DNA of 64,000 bases from Rhodoferax fermentans (GTDB lineage Bacteria > Pseudomonadota > Gammaproteobacteria > Burkholderiales > Burkholderiaceae_C), in assembly GCF_002017865.1 (NCBI RefSeq), contig NZ_MTJN01000002.1:2356001-2420000 (forward strand). Direction: 5' to 3'. The translations under genes and the position numbers were made by a program. Shown here piece by piece: positions 57,046-64,000 of this stretch. Numbering within the stretch: the stretch's first letter is position 1; each line of letters opens with the position of its first letter. The notes below the pieces were generated by a model that saw only the letters and a program-made list of their open reading frames with translations, did not search any database and was not told where the DNA came from.

Positions 57046-58146
57046 TCAGTCTTTCTTGTCAGGAAACCAGGCCAGCCAGATCTTGCGTGATAGGTGTTGA
57101 ATCAACAGCCAGGGTGGCATGCGCAGCCAATGACCGCGCACATACAGCAGCCACCGGGCGAATGGCGTCCAGCGATCAGACAACGTCGGGTGGGGTGGTC
57201 GCAATGCTCTCAGGTACAGCGCGTCCATCAGCAAAAGTAGAGGTGGCGACGGGCGAGCGTGCGGTGCCGCATCCAACTGCGACACGGTAGCAGAAGGTAT
57301 TGGGGAATCCAGCACCATGCGTGCATAGCGCAACGCGTAAAACAAAGGGCGGGTGAGCTCAAGTTCGATGGCTCGGCCGATGAGTTGCAACCAAAAGTCT
57401 GGTGCTGCCGATGATTCGCGCAATAACAGATCAATGTCAACCAGGCCGTGTAACCCTTTCTCGAGATCGCCCTCATGAAAAAGATGGGACGCGCTGTGAA
57501 GGACGCGATCCAGCGGTGACAGGACGTGAACCTGGCGATTTGGCGCAATCAGCACGGTGGCTTTCAGCAGCTTGTCCGTGCTTGGATGCAGGCGTGCGGA
57601 CAACGGCAAGATGGCGTGGTGGACATCAATCGTGGTACCTCGCTTGAAGTGTTGCATCGGTGGCAACTCGTGCATCCACTCGCGGTAGTAGACCTGGTCA
57701 TAGGCACTTTTCGCATTTGAGACCCAACCGCCCATCATGAGGGCCTTTTCAACTGCGGGCAACGCAGCGCGCGAAACCAGAATATCCACGTCAGAAACCA
57801 GGCGCCCCCGCGCCACCGCTGAACGGGCCAGCACATAGGCCGCACCCTTCAGGAGGACAACCGGCACGTCGACGTCCTTCAAAGCATCGGCAATATGGTC
57901 AACTTCCCACCGGAGCTCCTGCTGTTGTCTAATCGCCAGATTCAAGGCGGACTGCAAGTGCATTTGCACTTGCGCAGGGATGCTGCCCCAGCAGCCGGTG
58001 TCGTGTGCAGCGGCGCTCATGCGGGCCAAAAGATCACCTCGGCGAGCCTGCCTGATTAAGATGTCCCATTGCTCTGGGCGCAACTGACGCAGGCGCTGCG
58101 GGCAATACAAGGCATCGATCAGCAGATTCATGTAGGCAGATTTCAC
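57046..58146 (-). CDS. Nucleotidyltransferase-family protein of the HPr-rel-A operon
   Basis: 366 residues of the Nucleotidyl_transferase family PF14907 type. The polymerase-beta-like site is seen as 'VVLLKGAAYVLAR' followed by 'GRLVSDVDILVSRAALPAVE' (Asp-x-Asp), and later 'TTIDVHHAILPL'. Such proteins occur beside HprK-related kinase A and the PqqD-like protein. The start overlaps the kinase stop by 4 nt (ATGA). Substrate and reaction of the whole system are not known. Confidence 0.78.
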   Translation of the reverse strand: MKSAYMNLLIDALYCPQRLRQLRPEQWDILIRQARRGDLLARMSAAAHDTGCWGSIPAQVQMHLQSALNLAIRQQQELRWEVDHIADALKDVDVPVVLLKGAAYVLARSAVARGRLVSDVDILVSRAALPAVEKALMMGGWVSNAKSAYDQVYYREWMHELPPMQHFKRGTTIDVHHAILPLSARLHPSTDKLLKATVLIAPNRQVHVLSPLDRVLHSASHLFHEGDLEKGLHGLVDIDLLLRESSAAPDFWLQLIGRAIELELTRPLFYALRYARMVLDSPIPSATVSQLDAAPHARPSPPLLLLMDALYLRALRPPHPTLSDRWTPFARWLLYVRGHWLRMPPWLLIQHLSRKIWLAWFPDKKD

Positions 58147-59057
58147 TGGGCAGCTGTCAGTGTGTCAAACCAAGCCAACGCCTCATCCAGTTGGCTGTAG
58201 GTCAAGCTGTAACAGTCACTTTGGTCCACTAGCCGGGCAAGTGCCTCAAAGCCTTGGCGGCCGTGAACATGCTGGTTAAAACTGTTTTCTGCCAACTGCA
58301 TCAGACTCCCCGGCTTGGGGTTGACGGCGACCGAGAGCGGAGCAGAAGCTTCGTACTTGGGAAACACCAGCCAGGCGGGCAGGGCGGGCACATCAGCCCG
58401 CTGCAGGCTATCGGACGACACCTTCATGTGGGCCACAGTCCCCTTCAATGTGTCATGGGCGACAGGGCCAAACACCGCCTGTGGTGCGCGTTTTCGAATG
58501 ATGCCAATGGATTCGTTTTTCAGACTGACCGGTCGAGGGGCGGGCTGAATCAGTCCAGTGTTGGGGTCCAGCAGCGCCATCTCGTCTGACAGCAGGCGCC
58601 ATCCATGCAACATCAAGGCAGCACACAATGTGCTCTTGCCCGAGCCCGGTGGTGCGGGTAGGATCACGGCTCGGCCGCCCCGCTCCAGTACAGCAGAGTG
58701 AATGGTAATCAGCGTATGGCAGTACCCTGTCACACACCAGTTCATGCCCCACTCCAGGAACGCAAAGGCCTCACCGGCTGCCAAGGGGGTGAACGGCTGA
58801 AAGCCATCCATCTCAAAAACACACAGCGGTTTGAACAGGGTGCGTTTGGGAACAACCGCAACATGAAAATCGGCAAATGTGCTGCTGGCGTCCAGCATCT
58901 CATGCTCTGCGTAAAGCTGAAACAAGCCCTCTGCAACGATGGGGCTGTCGCTGCGGATGTGCATCACAAACGGTGGCAGACGTAAACGCACGCCGTCAGA
59001 GGCCAAGCGAACGGAGAGTTCAGTTTTGCTGAGTAGTGATAGTCGCTGGGGAATCAA
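58143..59057 (-). CDS. HprK-related kinase A
   Basis: 304 residues related to the C-terminal kinase domain of HPr kinase/phosphorylase. Walker A 'LPAPPGSGKSTLCAALM' (about 132-148), then 'LLSDEMALLD'. The N-terminal part 'LLSKTELSVRLASDGVRLRL' matches the start region of the HPr-rel-A kinase group. No true HPr protein is encoded here, so the target is unknown. The start is TTG 59057, which overlaps the PqqD-like gene by 38 nt; another nearby start is possible. Confidence 0.8.
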   Translation of the reverse strand: MIPQRLSLLSKTELSVRLASDGVRLRLPPFVMHIRSDSPIVAEGLFQLYAEHEMLDASSTFADFHVAVVPKRTLFKPLCVFEMDGFQPFTPLAAGEAFAFLEWGMNWCVTGYCHTLITIHSAVLERGGRAVILPAPPGSGKSTLCAALMLHGWRLLSDEMALLDPNTGLIQPAPRPVSLKNESIGIIRKRAPQAVFGPVAHDTLKGTVAHMKVSSDSLQRADVPALPAWLVFPKYEASAPLSVAVNPKPGSLMQLAENSFNQHVHGRQGFEALARLVDQSDCYSLTYSQLDEALAWFDTLTAAQ

Positions 59058-59334
59058 GGCAGATGCACTCTATGATGTCCATGGCCTTGAAATGTAGCAG
59101 TAGCTGCTTCATCTGAACCGCTTCCTCCGCACTGGGGGCTTCACCCAGTACATTGAACAGAATCTCATGGGCTGTCAAGGAGCCGCCTGTCAAAAGCTGA
59201 TTCAAGACCTCGCCGGCGATCGGCGTGAGCTCATGCAACTGAGCATTGGCGTCATCAAAAACAACGCCCCCTTCTGACCAAATTCTTAAACTGAGGTCCT
59301 TGGCACGTGGGCAACACCAAGTTGTCATTGGCAT
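59020..59334 (-). CDS. PqqD-family protein of the HPr-rel-A system
   Basis: 104 residues with the PqqD-like opening 'LSLRIWSEGGVVFDDANAQL' and 'HELTPIAGEVLNQLLTGG'. PqqD proteins hold a precursor peptide for a modifying enzyme. No radical SAM enzyme is present here; the kinase and nucleotidyltransferase take that place. It begins 4 nt after the Tat-exported protein gene, the obvious candidate substrate. ATG 59334 or 59328. Confidence 0.78.
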   Translation of the reverse strand: MPMTTWCCPRAKDLSLRIWSEGGVVFDDANAQLHELTPIAGEVLNQLLTGGSLTAHEILFNVLGEAPSAEEAVQMKQLLLHFKAMDIIECICLDSPATITTQQN

Positions 59335-59338
59335 CAGC

Positions 59339-59971
59339 TTACAAGTTGGTTATCGCGAAGGGCGCTCCATAAATTTTATCGAAATAGGCCATGGTGTCGT
59401 CCAGTGTCCAATTCAAACCAGCCGCTGGCGTCCATGCACCTTTTCCTGCCCAGATGGTTTTACATTGCTCGGCGGTTATCAATACACTATTTGGATTGTT
59501 TTCGTTCGCAACAGCAGTGAGAAAGGATCCTACCAAATGCCTAGCGAGTGATTCAAGGCCACCGCCGCCTGTCGACAGAACTTGTTGAAGCGTTTTTCCA
59601 GCGAAATTTGGAAACACTGTTGCATCGAACAGCGCGGATACATAGCCTTGAGCTGTTCCTTGAAAGAGAGACTTATCCTTGTCGTTGTACGGAAATGGGT
59701 GGCTGTGGTTTTTCCAATGACCGTGCGAAAAACAGTTGTAGGTGGTATTGACAGTCCGCCCTCGGCTGACTTTCCAGTTTGCAGGCTTTAGCGACGAAAA
59801 AGACGACGGTTTGATGCAGGTGTGATCGCCAGCAAGAACGGTATTGCTTTTCATCGCAGCCAGTACAGGTGCCGCTGCCAAGCCAGCACGCAACAACCGC
59901 CGACGCGCAATACCAGTCGTTTGAGCTGACTCAACGGTTTGTGGCAAAGATTCAGTTTGTGTTTCGTTCAT
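59339..59971 (-). CDS. Tat-exported protein of unknown function, first gene of the HPr-rel-A operon
   Basis: 210 residues. A twin-arginine signal ('GIARRRLLRAGLAAAPVLAA') starts near residue 20. The mature part has two cysteine-containing blocks and 'CFSHGHWKNHSHPFPYND', a variant of the C-x-x-G-x-W-K-N-H pattern seen in secreted proteins of PEP-CTERM bacteria. 'GKTLQQVLSTGGGGLESLAR' follows. No C-terminal PEP-CTERM anchor is present. ATG 59971 has GAGGTGAG upstream, and the gene is preceded by a sigma-54 promoter. It is likely a folded secreted protein handled or modified by the next three gene products. Confidence 0.75.
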   Translation of the reverse strand: MNETQTESLPQTVESAQTTGIARRRLLRAGLAAAPVLAAMKSNTVLAGDHTCIKPSSFSSLKPANWKVSRGRTVNTTYNCFSHGHWKNHSHPFPYNDKDKSLFQGTAQGYVSALFDATVFPNFAGKTLQQVLSTGGGGLESLARHLVGSFLTAVANENNPNSVLITAEQCKTIWAGKGAWTPAAGLNWTLDDTMAYFDKIYGAPFAITNL

Positions 59972-59997
59972 AAGCTCACCTCGTATTTGCTAGATTA

Positions 59998-60014
59998 AGC
60001 AAATTATGCGCCAA
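59998..60014 (-). promoter_or_regulatory. Sigma-54 (-24/-12) promoter of the HPr-rel-A operon
   Basis: The minus strand reads TTGGCGCATAATTTGCT: TTGGC and TTGCT in correct phase. Predicted start about 59987, 16 nt before the ATG. PrsR, a sigma-54 activator, is encoded 3 kb away. Confidence 0.7.
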
Positions 60015-60076
60015 CAGTCATACATTGTTGAATTGATTGGGCTTTTAAGCACGAAGCCCGGTAAATTCTCGGTAGT

Positions 60077-60093
60077 TGTAAACAATGCCGACA
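60077..60093. promoter_or_regulatory. Candidate upstream activator site (TGT-N11-ACA)
   Basis: TGTAAACAATGCCGACA, an imperfect dyad ending TGT...ACA, about 90-106 nt upstream of the predicted sigma-54 start, the usual distance for an NtrC-type activator. PrsR is the natural candidate; unproven. Confidence 0.35.
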
Positions 60094-60114: not shown

Positions 60115-62889
60115 TCACAGGCCCTTGATCAACTGCGCCACTTCCTTCTGTCCCCCAAACTTGTCCCCCAGCTTCGCCAGTTCATCCAATTGCACCTTGG
60201 CCAAGTCTTTCTTGCCACCTTTGATGTGTATCTTGGCCAGGTTCAGCTTGAATATCGGGTTCTCTGGCTGTAGTGTGACCACCTTGGTTTGCACTTCCAG
60301 CGCTTTGGCGTAATCGCCCTTGTCTGACAGCAACTCGGCCAATGTGTCCATCAAGGCGGGCTGGTTGGGCGCCAATGCATTGGCCTTCTCCGCCAAGGCG
60401 ATAGCACCATCTTTGTTGAGCCGGGCGGTTACCCAGGCCAGGTTGTTAAAGGCTACGGCGTTGTTGGGCTGCAGTTGGGTCACACGGGTGTATAGCTTTT
60501 CAGCGCCTGAGTAGTCTTTGCGGCTGATGGCGCCGTCACCCAGGTACAACAGGAAGACAGTGTCTTTAGGCTGGTCTCGTTGCCAAGTTGCGGAAAACTT
60601 CTCAGCCTCACTTGTTTTGCCTGCTGCCAACAACACCGAATGCAATTTGACGGCCAGTTCGGCAGAGCTGGCTTGTTTCAGCCCCGTCTGGTAAGCGTTT
60701 GCGGCGGCGTCCCAGTTCTTCTGGGAGGCGTTGATATCACCTTCTAGAACATATCCGACCGCATCTTTAGGGCCTTGTTTCTGCATGGTCTTGGCTGTGG
60801 TCAAGGCTCCACTGATGTTTTTGCCGTCCATGTCCAGCAAGATACTGCCACGTTGGGCTGCCTGCAAGTCAGGTTTGATATCCAGCGCCTTGCGCAAGCT
60901 GGCAGCAGCGGCAGCTTTGTCTTTGTTGGCCATGTGTACATCGGCCAAACGCAGGTAGGGCTGTGGTGACAGGGGTTGCATGCCTGCCAGTTTGTTGAAG
61001 CTGGCAATGGACTGGTTGAATTCACCTGCGGCAAGCTGCGTGCGACCCAAAGCGTCCAGCAGTTCAGGGTTGTTGGGCAGCGTGGCGACTGCATCTTGTG
61101 CGGCTGACGTCGCCAGTTTCACATCCTTGTTGCGCAAATGGAAGTCAATCAGCAGCAGGCGTGGCGCTGCCTCGGTGGGGTTGGCGGAAACCGCGTTGTT
61201 GATCAGCTTGCCGACCTCATCCTTGCTGGCGCCAGTTCTGGCCGCCAGTTCAGCTTGTGCCAGCAGCGCCTGGGCGTTTTTGGGGTCTTTGGCCAGCACA
61301 GCGTCAAAACGTGCCTTCGCGTCTTGCGGCTTCTTGTCGGCCAGGTCCAGGCCCGCCAAACTGGCGACAGCCGGAAAGAACATGGGGTCAATCTGCAAAG
61401 CCCGCTCAAAACTCTTGCGGGCGCCTGGCAGGTCACGTTTGATCAGCAGAACTCGTCCGCGCAAGTTAGCAGCCAGTGGTTTGTCCGCTTGCTTTTTCTC
61501 AAGGGCATCAATGGCTTTGAGCGCCTTGTCGAGTTCCTGGCGGCGTAAATGGGCACTGATCAGTGCCATGTCGGCCGTGATGCCACTGTCGGATGCTGAA
61601 ATGTTCTGCAACTCACCAAATGCGTTGTCCACCTGGCCGCTGATCATGTGGGTCAGCGCCAGCGAGGTGCGGTTTCTGGCGTTCTTAGGGTCTTGTTGGG
61701 TGGCTTTGGTGAAGTATTCCTCGGCCTTTTTCACATCGTTGTTCTGCAGGTACACCTCACCCGCCACCGCATACAGGCCGGGGTCGATGTTGTCGCCGAC
61801 CAAGCCCGGTTTCAGGGTGTCCAACGCTTTTGTGGCCTGGCCGGATCGCAGATAAGTCATCACCAGCAAGCGGCGAGCCAGTGGTAGGTTGGGGGCAGCT
61901 TGTAGCGCCTTACTCAGGTACACCTCGGCTTGCAAGGGCGAATTGAGTTGAAGCTCGATGGCGCCGGCCAGTTGAAGTCCTTGCACATTGTTGGGCGCAG
62001 CTTTCAAAACCTGCTGCGTCAACTCGCGTGCGGCCTTCAAGTCCATTTGCTGGTAAGCCAAATTGGCTTCCAGAAACTTGGTTTGGGGTTGGTTGGGGGC
62101 GATTTTCTTTAACTGTTCGATCTGGCTGGCTGCGTCTGGCAGATTGTTCTGTTGCAACAACAAGGTGACTGCAGCCGTCTGGCCCGCGAGAAAATCGGGT
62201 TTGATCTCGACCGATTTGCGGTAGGCCGCCAAAGCCTCTGCCGGTTGGTTTTTGGCGTAACGCAGCAGATCCCCTTTGAGCTTCCAGGCTTCAAAACTTT
62301 GCGGGTTTTTGGAAATGACTTCATCGGCAATGGCCAGTGCGCCATCAAAGTCGCGTTGGCCACCTTTCTGGCGTGCTTGGATCAGCTTGGCAGGCGCGTA
62401 GTCAGGAGCAGTTGCCAGAGCCGCATCAAGTGCAGTCTGAGCAGGCTCTGTTTGCCCCTGCGCTGCGTAGGCGCCAGCCAGACTGGTCAGCAGTGAGGCT
62501 TGCGCGGTTTTGTCTGCCAAGTTGGTCTTGCCAAATTCATCGGTCAGTTTTTTGGCTTGTCCTTGTGCCAGCATTGCAGTAGCCAGCAATGGTAGGGTTT
62601 TGTCTTGGGCAAATTTCAGTGCCAGGGCTTTGCGCAGCTCTGTTTCTGCGCCCGCCACGTCACCACTTTCTAGCAGCGTCTTACCCAGCAAATAACGAGC
62701 CTCTGGCATGTCCGGGCTTTTTTGCAGTGCGTTTTTGATCTGGATGACTGCGGCTTTGCTGTCATTTTTCGCCAGATAGTCTTTGGCGGAGCTGATCATG
62801 GCCTCGGGCTTGTCGCCACAAGCCACCAACAGCAGAGACACCAGCAGCGCTGGCAGTGCACCACGGATGGGATGTTTTGTGATTTTCAT
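60115..62889 (-). CDS. prsT: PEP-CTERM system TPR-repeat lipoprotein PrsT
   Basis: 924 residues. Lipoprotein signal ('LVSLLLVACGD') followed by about 20 tetratricopeptide repeats across the whole length ('AVIQIKNALQKSPDMPEARY', 'GETYLQ'-like units). This length and layout are those of the PrsT protein found with exosortase/PEP-CTERM systems, thought to act in the periplasm in exopolysaccharide and surface-protein handling. It lies 37 nt after prsR and is probably co-transcribed with it. Confidence 0.88.
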   Translation of the reverse strand: MKITKHPIRGALPALLVSLLLVACGDKPEAMISSAKDYLAKNDSKAAVIQIKNALQKSPDMPEARYLLGKTLLESGDVAGAETELRKALALKFAQDKTLPLLATAMLAQGQAKKLTDEFGKTNLADKTAQASLLTSLAGAYAAQGQTEPAQTALDAALATAPDYAPAKLIQARQKGGQRDFDGALAIADEVISKNPQSFEAWKLKGDLLRYAKNQPAEALAAYRKSVEIKPDFLAGQTAAVTLLLQQNNLPDAASQIEQLKKIAPNQPQTKFLEANLAYQQMDLKAARELTQQVLKAAPNNVQGLQLAGAIELQLNSPLQAEVYLSKALQAAPNLPLARRLLVMTYLRSGQATKALDTLKPGLVGDNIDPGLYAVAGEVYLQNNDVKKAEEYFTKATQQDPKNARNRTSLALTHMISGQVDNAFGELQNISASDSGITADMALISAHLRRQELDKALKAIDALEKKQADKPLAANLRGRVLLIKRDLPGARKSFERALQIDPMFFPAVASLAGLDLADKKPQDAKARFDAVLAKDPKNAQALLAQAELAARTGASKDEVGKLINNAVSANPTEAAPRLLLIDFHLRNKDVKLATSAAQDAVATLPNNPELLDALGRTQLAAGEFNQSIASFNKLAGMQPLSPQPYLRLADVHMANKDKAAAAASLRKALDIKPDLQAAQRGSILLDMDGKNISGALTTAKTMQKQGPKDAVGYVLEGDINASQKNWDAAANAYQTGLKQASSAELAVKLHSVLLAAGKTSEAEKFSATWQRDQPKDTVFLLYLGDGAISRKDYSGAEKLYTRVTQLQPNNAVAFNNLAWVTARLNKDGAIALAEKANALAPNQPALMDTLAELLSDKGDYAKALEVQTKVVTLQPENPIFKLNLAKIHIKGGKKDLAKVQLDELAKLGDKFGGQKEVAQLIKGL

Positions 62890-62926: not shown

Positions 62927-64000
62927 TTATTTCAACCCGAGCCGGTGCATCAAATCGTACAGCGTGGGTCGACTCACACCCAACAACTCCGCGGCTTTGA
63001 GCACATTGCCATTCACACGGCCCAACGCCGCCAGAATGGCGGTTTTTTCCGCGTTGTCGCGGATGACGCGTAAGTCCAGTGAGGTGTCCAGCGCGTCACT
63101 GGCTGGCTGCAGACCCACATCTTCGCGGGTGATCTGATTGCCATCGGCCATGATGACGGCGCGTTTGATGCAGTTTTCCAGCTCGCGGATGTTGCCAGGC
63201 CAAGTGTGTTGCTCGATGGCCTTGACCGCATCTTCACTGAGTGTCAGCGATGCGCGGTTTTGCTCTTGTGCAAATCGGCGGGCAAAGGCGTGTGCCAGTA
63301 ACGCAGAGTCACCCACGCGGTCACGCAGTGGCGGGATGTTGACCACAATCTCTGCGAGCCGGTAGTACAAGTCCTCGCGGAACCGGTTTTCCTTGGCAAG
63401 CGCCATCAGGTCCTGATGGGTGGCGCAAACGATGCGCACATCTACGGCAATCTCCTGTCGACCGCCCACGCGTTCAATGGTGCGTTCTTGCAAAAATCGT
63501 AGCAACTTGGCCTGCAATTGAAAGGGCAAATCGCCAATTTCATCCAGCATCAAGGTGCCGCCATTGGCAGTTTCGATCTTGCCCAGCGTGGTTTTGGCAG
63601 CTCCGGTGAAAGCGCCTTTCTCATATCCAAAGAGCTCACTCTCCAGCAAATTCTCGGGAATGGCGGCACAGTTGATGGCTACGAACTTCTCACCCCGTCG
63701 CGGCGATGCCTGATGTAAGCCGCGCGCCAGCACCTCTTTGCCGGTACCACTTTCACCGAGCAGCATGACAGTGGCGTTGCTGGCGGCGACCTTCTCAATG
63801 GTGCGGCAGATACGCATCATCTGCGGGTCACGGGTGGTCAGGCCCGCCAGCGCGTCAGGCTGATGCAGAGCGCGCAGACGTTTGTTTTCAGCCTGCAATT
63901 CAAACAAGCGAAAGGCCCGCTCCACCGTCAGGTTCAGCAGTTCGGGCTCGAACGGTTTGGCAAAAAAGTCGTACGCCCCCATGGCTACAGCGCGCAAAGC
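62927..64000 (-). CDS. prsR: PEP-CTERM-box sigma-54 response regulator PrsR (5' part outside the window)
   Basis: NtrC-type activator. The visible 357 residues begin in the last part of the receiver domain ('GAYDFFAKPFEPELLNLTVE'), then the AAA+ domain: Walker A 'LLGESGTGKEVLARGL', the sigma-54-contacting 'GYEKGAFTGAAK', Walker B 'GTLMLDEIGDL', and a Fis-type helix-turn-helix at the end ('VLKAAELLGVSRPTLYDLM'). The frame is open through base 64000, so the start and phosphoacceptor Asp lie outside. Partner of the sensor kinase PrsK in PEP-CTERM bacteria. Confidence 0.9.
   Translation of the reverse strand, partial: ALRAVAMGAYDFFAKPFEPELLNLTVERAFRLFELQAENKRLRALHQPDALAGLTTRDPQMMRICRTIEKVAASNATVMLLGESGTGKEVLARGLHQASPRRGEKFVAINCAAIPENLLESELFGYEKGAFTGAAKTTLGKIETANGGTLMLDEIGDLPFQLQAKLLRFLQERTIERVGGRQEIAVDVRIVCATHQDLMALAKENRFREDLYYRLAEIVVNIPPLRDRVGDSALLAHAFARRFAQEQNRASLTLSEDAVKAIEQHTWPGNIRELENCIKRAVIMADGNQITREDVGLQPASDALDTSLDLRVIRDNAEKTAILAALGRVNGNVLKAAELLGVSRPTLYDLMHRLGLK

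What the first reader, a model, noticed from the sequence alone, without database searches (positions are those of the whole stretch)
57046..60093. HPr-rel-A operon with a Tat-exported partner and a sigma-54 promoter next to prsR
Four tightly packed genes (gaps of +4, overlaps of 38 and 4 nt): Tat protein, PqqD-like protein, HprK-related kinase A, nucleotidyltransferase. Known: HPr-rel-A kinase and PqqD-like proteins are grouped in PEP-CTERM bacteria, but no reaction is established. A PqqD-type carrier with a kinase and a nucleotidyltransferase suggests peptide or protein modification by phosphoryl or nucleotidyl groups. The TTGGCGCATAATTTGCT promoter and the nearby PrsR tie it to the PEP-CTERM regulon. 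This is the best candidate here for an undescribed system.
Basis: partly seen in the sequence, partly recalled or inferred. Interest (0 to 1): 0.85.

Follow-up and report, generated by a model that had tools for sequence, protein, structure and literature searches.

The report
Modification cassette for an exported protein
Four neighbouring genes encode a protein with an export signal together with enzymes that probably attach a phosphate-based group to it, and the same gene set recurs in many bacterial genomes, which makes a so far undescribed protein modification testable.

Summary
The four genes are real: gap 4 nt, overlaps 38 and 4 nt. The kinase is HprK_rel_A (366.5 bits, cut-off 200) and the last gene PF14907. 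The PqqD-like protein is below its family cut-off, but its model resembles RiPP recognition elements (RREs), best lasso B1 proteins solved with leaders.

New: the RR-leader protein belongs to an unnamed family found at 80 of 81 kinase loci, 79 of 80 further loci and in all 49 kinase-bearing genomes among 200. Its mature domain is confidently modelled without PDB match. Ser60 is kept in 94 of 94 homologues, but only 6 of 12 distant ones.

The PrsR-box/sigma-54 element has the spacing seen at two PEP-CTERM genes of the same genome and recurs at sister cassettes.

Best reading: RRE recruits the precursor, kinase phosphorylates a conserved Ser, the nucleotidyltransferase decorates the phosphate, and Tat exports the product. 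The chemistry is inferred from linear polyphosphorylated peptides and pseudomycoidin. New variant of a known kind.

The parts
60077..60093 (-). PrsR/PEP-CTERM box (motif 1) TGTCG-N6-TTTACA
   Evidence: Exact match, 80 nt start-to-start from the sigma-54 site, as at two PEP-CTERM genes of the same genome. TTTACA precedes 25 of 34 sister promoters against 1.8 shuffled and 0 at control positions.
59998..60014 (-). sigma-54 -24/-12 promoter TTGGCGCATAATTTGCT
   Evidence: 10 of 11 consensus positions; exact 17-mer unique in the genome.
59339..59971 (-). RR-leader (Tat-type) precursor, 210 aa: leader about 1-47, globular mature domain about 50-210
   Evidence: ORF; no Pfam family and no significant NCBIfam family; model mean pLDDT 84.8, ten-residue means 92-98 from residue 51; family at 80 of 81 kinase loci.
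59900..59905 (-). twin-arginine codons R23 R24
   Evidence: 57/58 and 58/58 in A2, 93/94 in A4, 12/12 in the distant set.
59792..59818 (-). C52..S56..S60 segment (Ser60 codon 59792-59794): proposed modification site
   Evidence: S60 in 55/58, 94/94 and 71/74 but 6/12 distant sequences; S56 in 52/58, 62/94, 73/74; C52 in 57/58, 80/94, 67/74.
59732..59734 (-). Cys80 codon
   Evidence: 54/58, 65/94 and 67/74; a disulfide with C52 is inference.
59020..59334 (-). PqqD-like RRE, 104 aa
58143..59057 (-). HprK-related kinase A, 304 aa (TTG start; H120, K141, D158, E159)
   Evidence: TIGR04352 366.5 bits; the four residues invariant in 81 of 81.
57046..58146 (-). PF14907 nucleotidyltransferase, 366 aa (K100, D119xD121, D174)
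   Evidence: PF14907 183 bits; the four residues invariant in 79 of 79.
60115..62889 (-). prsT, PEP-CTERM-system TPR protein (context)
   Evidence: TIGR02917 868 bits.
62927..64000 (-). prsR, PEP-CTERM-box response regulator (runs past the window end; context)
   Evidence: TIGR02915 588 bits.

Best explanation
The operon encodes an RRE-guided modification system for its own exported protein. PrsR and RpoN switch it on together with some PEP-CTERM genes (shared DNA element shown, regulation inferred). The PqqD-like RRE binds the leader of the 210-aa precursor in the cytoplasm and presents it to the HprK-like kinase, which phosphorylates a conserved Ser shortly after the leader, most likely Ser60 (Ser56 is the alternative). 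The PF14907 enzyme then adds a sugar or nucleotidyl group to that phosphate. The modified, folded domain is exported by Tat through its RR leader, cut near Ala47, and joins the exopolysaccharide/PEP-CTERM matrix. Shown by computation: the recurrent four-gene unit, the precursor family, the RRE-like fold, intact catalytic residues, the conserved Ser within the class, and the regulatory element. Inferred: substrate, site, chemistry, Tat route and role.
For: Gene set: NTase at 79/81, RRE-like ORF at 78/81, precursor at 80/81; 80 named loci: 78, 79 and 79. All 49 kinase-bearing genomes of 200 carry a precursor match, against 8 weak ones in 151 others. RRE model nearest to lasso B1 proteins bound to leaders. 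Kinase H-K-D-E and NTase Asp residues invariant. The mature part diverges (median 21.5% identity; kinase 44.1%, NTase 42.2%), yet S60 is mostly kept. A related trio phosphorylates a peptide Ser in LPPs (PMC13381572); kinase plus NTase give phosphohexosylated Ser in pseudomycoidin (PMC9266682). Regulatory element.
Against: No modification has been observed. In 20 loci drawn mostly from other classes, precursor was found at 12, RRE at 15 and NTase at 17, and only 6 of those 12 have Ser at position 60. The lasso/LPP leader motif is absent (3 of 150 leaders, 2.0 by chance), so recognition must differ. Tat models barely see the leader: PF10518 in 1 of 58, TIGR01409 not at this gene. Deleting the NTase of the LPP cluster changed nothing in a heterologous host. 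Four loci of another class carry a different, shorter RR precursor. The conserved Ser could be structural.
Confidence: 0.58

Rival explanations
1. A sub-case of the best explanation taken the other way: the PF14907 enzyme nucleotidylates the protein or its phosphate and adds no sugar.
For: PF14907 is described as an uncharacterised nucleotidyltransferase and its Asp residues are invariant. The review of pseudomycoidin leaves open that PsmN nucleotidylates and a host enzyme adds the sugar (PMC9266682).
Against: The product reported for the related cluster carries hexose on phosphate.
Confidence: 0.25
2. RRE, kinase and NTase act on another molecule (exopolysaccharide intermediate, lipid carrier or HPr-like protein), and the RR protein is only a co-regulated matrix protein.
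For: A PF01370-type sugar-nucleotide gene lies near 15 of 81 loci; the kinases of L297 and L308 sit behind genes that look, by eye, like sugar genes. HprK is the nearest solved relative of the kinase. Kinase and NTase occur at L276 without a recognisable precursor or RRE.
Against: Precursor at 80 of 81 loci, genome-level pairing, an RRE nearest to leader-binding proteins, and a different RR precursor in the same slot elsewhere.
Confidence: 0.17
3. The RR leader is a recognition sequence for the RRE and a peptidase, not a Tat signal; the product stays in the cell or leaves by another route.
For: Weak match to Tat models; a family-specific (T/S)LxSRP-like stretch in 70 of 150 leaders. LPPs use an SpI-like peptidase and an MsbA-like exporter.
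Against: RR nearly invariant, then a hydrophobic stretch and mostly Ala/Gly at the predicted cut. No peptidase or exporter was recognised as a core gene, though not every neighbour was annotated; a trypsin-like gene lies near 24 of 81.
Confidence: 0.12
4. The kinase/NTase pair is a signalling device controlling EPS or PEP-CTERM expression, with the RR protein as its sensor.
For: Shared promoter architecture with PEP-CTERM genes; HprK homology.
Against: Does not explain the RRE, nor a fast-diverging exported domain that keeps a Ser.
Confidence: 0.05

Closest known systems
Linear polyphosphorylated peptides (LPP, Bacillota; Nat Commun 2026, PMC13381572; abstract, sections 6, 7 and 12 and a few passages read)
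   Same: Discrete RRE related to lasso RREs, HprK-like kinase, NTP transferase; precursors with conserved N-terminus and variable rest; one phosphorylated Ser close to the leader; clusters often beside polysaccharide genes.
   Different: Here the precursor carries a folded domain of about 160 aa and an RR leader without YxxP; no SpI peptidase or MsbA-like exporter was recognised in the cassette; mostly pseudomonadotal hosts; PrsR-box/sigma-54 element.
Paeninodin/pseudomycoidin-type lasso peptide clusters (reviews PMC9266682 and PMC8498205; passages read)
   Same: RRE (B1) with HprK-like kinase and nucleotidyltransferase; phosphate, then hexose, on a Ser.
   Different: No PF13471 (B2-type) protein in the own genome and none over the cut-off on a kinase's contig in 49 cassette genomes; long folded precursor; no YxxP/WxxP leader motif.
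NCBIfam 'HPr-rel-A system' (TIGR04352 kinase, TIGR04353 PqqD)
   Same: Kinase over the curated cut-off; its PqqD partner family is the one seen beside it.
   Different: The precursor family has no NCBIfam or Pfam model of its own (58 members scanned); no paper with these names in the library searched.
PEP-CTERM/exosortase system (Haft 2006, PMC1569441; PMC9850573; passages read)
   Same: Same two-part cis-element; 47 of 49 cassette genomes have an exosortase against 59 of 151 others.
   Different: The precursor is not among the PEP-CTERM matches of its genome.

Membership tests
HPr-rel-A system (NCBIfam) | HprK-related kinase A over the curated cut-off | tested here: met
   366.5 bits, cut-off 200.
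HPr-rel-A system (NCBIfam) | PqqD_rel_X partner over the curated cut-off | tested here: not met
   22.5 bits, cut-off 35, for the window protein. 69 of 71 locus members match at E <= 0.001; how many pass the cut-off was not counted.
RRE (PqqD-like leader-binding fold) | RRE fold nearest to known leader-binding proteins | tested here: met
RRE (PqqD-like leader-binding fold) | Binds the leader of its own precursor | not testable with these tools
   No complex prediction or binding assay on hand.
LPP | RRE + HprK-like kinase + NTP transferase in one cluster | tested here: met
LPP | YxxP-type leader motif | tested here: not met
   3 of 150 leaders, 2.0 expected; no Tyr or Trp in the window leader.
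LPP | SpI-like leader peptidase and MsbA-like exporter in the cluster | tested here: inconclusive
   Not recognised among clustered ORFs of 81 loci, but most clusters were not annotated by profile.
Lasso peptide cluster | B2-type leader peptidase (PF13471) | tested here: not met
   None in the own genome; over cut-off in 7 of 49 cassette genomes, each time on another contig than the kinase.
Lasso peptide cluster | Macrolactam synthetase in the cluster | not tested
   Not searched for by profile.
PEP-CTERM regulon | Motif 1 plus sigma-54 site upstream | tested here: met
   Same spacing at the cassette and two PEP-CTERM genes. Motif 1 alone is not enriched genome-wide: 38 sites at <= 1 mismatch, 64 for the reversed control.
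PEP-CTERM regulon | Expression depends on PrsR and RpoN | not testable with these tools
   Needs mutants.
PEP-CTERM protein | C-terminal PEP-CTERM sorting signal on the exported protein | tested here: not met
   Eight TIGR02595 places in the genome, none at this gene.
Tat substrate | Twin-arginine signal peptide | tested here: inconclusive
   RR nearly invariant, hydrophobic stretch, A/G at the cut, but PF10518 matches 1 of 58 and TIGR01409 does not report this gene.

The most novel reading that the evidence does not exclude
A class of RRE-guided protein modification in which a lasso-type recognition element, an HprK-like kinase and a PF14907 enzyme put a phosphate-linked sugar on a folded protein domain before Tat export, giving a matrix protein a phosphodiester anchor for exopolysaccharide: a protein-polysaccharide link prepared in the cytoplasm and switched on with PEP-CTERM proteins.
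Probability: 0.19. Interest if true: 0.93.

Novelty: new variant of a known kind. Interest (0 to 1): 0.76.

Why it matters
NCBIfam names the kinase and its PqqD partner but no substrate. This work proposes one: an adjacent precursor family with a Ser that is nearly always kept within the class, so a point mutant and one intact-mass measurement can decide. If right, RRE-guided chemistry of the lasso/LPP kind, described so far for peptides, also works on a folded exported domain, and bacteria with exosortases have an extra way to decorate surface proteins under the same cis-element as PEP-CTERM genes, one of which is reported to be involved in floc formation (PMC9850573).

Tried and rejected

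Rows dropped: A2 holds 58 of 78 first-set precursors, window included (near-duplicates and ORFs with doubtful starts left out); A3 32 of 81 kinases; A5 71 of 73 short RRE-like ORFs (L066, L119 dropped); A6 68 of 70 (L246, L264 dropped); pairwise identities use 68 of 81 loci; 150 of 151 precursors gave a leader. The precursor profiles were built from first-set loci, partly the same genomes as searched, so hits there are not independent; the 151 genomes without kinase and the second set (74 of 79 precursors not identical to the first) are more so. S60 counts depend on the alignment: realigned together with the second set, the 57 other A2 rows give 51 Ser. The 200 genomes are taken to be the same draw because the listed handles agree; genomes without a match are not all listed. 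No association is corrected for kinship.
Full report
OBSERVATION. The window carries four minus-strand ORFs with the reported spacings: RR-leader protein 59339-59971, PqqD-like 59020-59334, kinase 58143-59057, nucleotidyltransferase 57046-58146; gap 4 nt, overlaps 38 and 4 nt. The kinase is HprK_rel_A TIGR04352 (366.5 bits, cut-off 200) and the last protein PF14907 (183 bits, cut-off 31.2). The PqqD-like protein scores 22.5 bits on TIGR04353, below its cut-off of 35. The RR-leader protein has no Pfam match and no significant NCBIfam match. Upstream lie prsT (TIGR02917) and then prsR (TIGR02915), so prsR is near rather than adjacent.

THE CASSETTE IS CONSERVED. TIGR04352 exceeds its cut-off in 41 of 369 genomes of the class, 49 of 200 of the family and 51 of 299 of the phylum. 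I took 80 regions around kinases plus the window. The NTase was found at 79 of 81, mostly directly downstream and at six loci divergent upstream; the two misses (L089, L093) lie close to a contig end. An RRE-like ORF ends near the kinase start at 78 of 81, five of them only inside longer naive ORFs. In the slot before it, an iterated profile found a protein with an RR leader at 74 of 81; counting all ORFs of the regions it is present at 80 of 81. The exception (L091) is cut by a contig end; at L117 and L119 it lies downstream, at L084 it is a 74-aa fragment and at L131 it lies inside an overlong frame. A second set of 80 loci with organism names (Hydrogenophaga, Rhodoferax, Massilia, Thiobacillus, Sulfuricella and others, nearly all titled as proteobacteria) gave NTase 78, RRE 79 and precursor 79 of 80. 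Twenty further loci, most from other classes of the phylum, gave NTase 17, RRE 15 and precursor 12 of 20, so the unit frays with distance.

GENOME-LEVEL PAIRING. In 200 family genomes the precursor profile matched 57: all 49 with the kinase, and 8 of the 151 without it, the latter at E 1.3e-6 or weaker and in six of eight confined to the leader region. The profile was built partly from these genomes, so the positive side is not independent. Exosortase PF09721 occurs in 106 of 200: 47 of 49 kinase genomes (not G435, G552) and 59 of 151 others (counted by hand; Fisher p 1.5e-13, not corrected for kinship).

THE ENZYMES. Kinase H120, K141 (P-loop), D158 and E159 are invariant in 81 of 81; NTase K100, D119, D121 and D174 in 79 of 79. 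[quoted passage not shown] that H120-K141-D158-E159 corresponds to it is my reading, with Glu in the last place. HprK is the best solved relative by profile, over profile positions 116-176 only (1jb1, E 3.3e-4).

REGULATION. Sites scoring at least 9 of 11 to TGGCAC-N5-TTGCW lie upstream of 34 of 78 precursors, against 3.1 in shuffles and 1 on the reverse strand. Upstream of those, TTTACA is found in 25 of 34 against 1.8 shuffled and 0 at control positions. Haft et al. 2006 (PMC1569441, passages) describe motif 1 (first seen as TTTACA), a spacer of 62.8 nt on average, then a sigma-54 motif upstream of PEP-CTERM genes; here 62 nt separate the box (60077-60093) from the 17-base promoter motif (59998-60014). 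In this genome the box starts exactly 80 nt before the -24 element at the cassette and at two PEP-CTERM genes, one of these boxes having one mismatch. Motif 1 alone is uninformative genome-wide. In Aquincola a PEP-CTERM gene upstream of prsT depends on RpoN1 and is involved in floc formation (PMC9850573, passages). PrsR control of this operon is inference.

HOW IT PROBABLY WORKS. In Bacillota, LPP clusters combine RRE, HprK-like kinase and NTP transferase; the kinase puts several phosphates on one Ser at core position 3, while deleting the NTase had no visible effect in the heterologous host (PMC13381572, sections read). In pseudomycoidin the kinase phosphorylates a Ser and the nucleotidyltransferase gene is needed for one or two hexoses on it (two reviews, passages; the original was not held). 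By analogy the RRE here would present the precursor, the kinase would phosphorylate Ser60 or Ser56, the NTase would extend the phosphate, and the folded product would leave by Tat. Each step after the gene inventory is inference. Weak points are the poor match of the leader to Tat models, the missing lasso-type leader motif, the loss of Ser60 in half of the distant precursors and kinase loci without a recognisable precursor.

VERDICT. A widespread cassette whose kinase and RRE have database names but whose precursor family has none and for which I found no paper in the library searched. It works like the LPP/phospho-lasso machinery but fails membership tests for both (leader motif, lasso B2 protease) and differs in substrate type and cis-element. 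New variant of a known kind.

Noticed in passing
L322-L324 (G379 C8, G534 C56, G420 C63): Very long repeat-rich ORFs (2173, 1904 and 1288 aa) carry two copies each of the precursor's C-terminal domain; in five of six copies the match begins after the Ser60 position. Looks like a matrix or adhesin module.
   Followed up: partly
   Followed up: partly
81 kinase loci, e.g. L061 5211-5987: A trypsin-like protease gene lies near the cassette at 24 of 81 loci; possible processing enzyme.
   Followed up: partly
81 kinase loci, e.g. L074 4738-5787: A PF01370-type sugar-nucleotide epimerase/dehydratase gene lies nearby at 15 of 81 loci.
   Followed up: no
L276 (Nitrosospira MAG), L297, L303, L308, L309: Kinase loci without a recognisable precursor or RRE; all but L297 keep an NTase match.
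   Followed up: partly
own genome C2:2483538 and C2:3047453: Two exosortase genes and eight PEP-CTERM places; within the stretches scanned only two PEP-CTERM genes show the box/sigma-54 pair.
   Followed up: partly
L113 (G534) and L128 (G420): Two precursor copies in tandem before one enzyme set.
   Followed up: no
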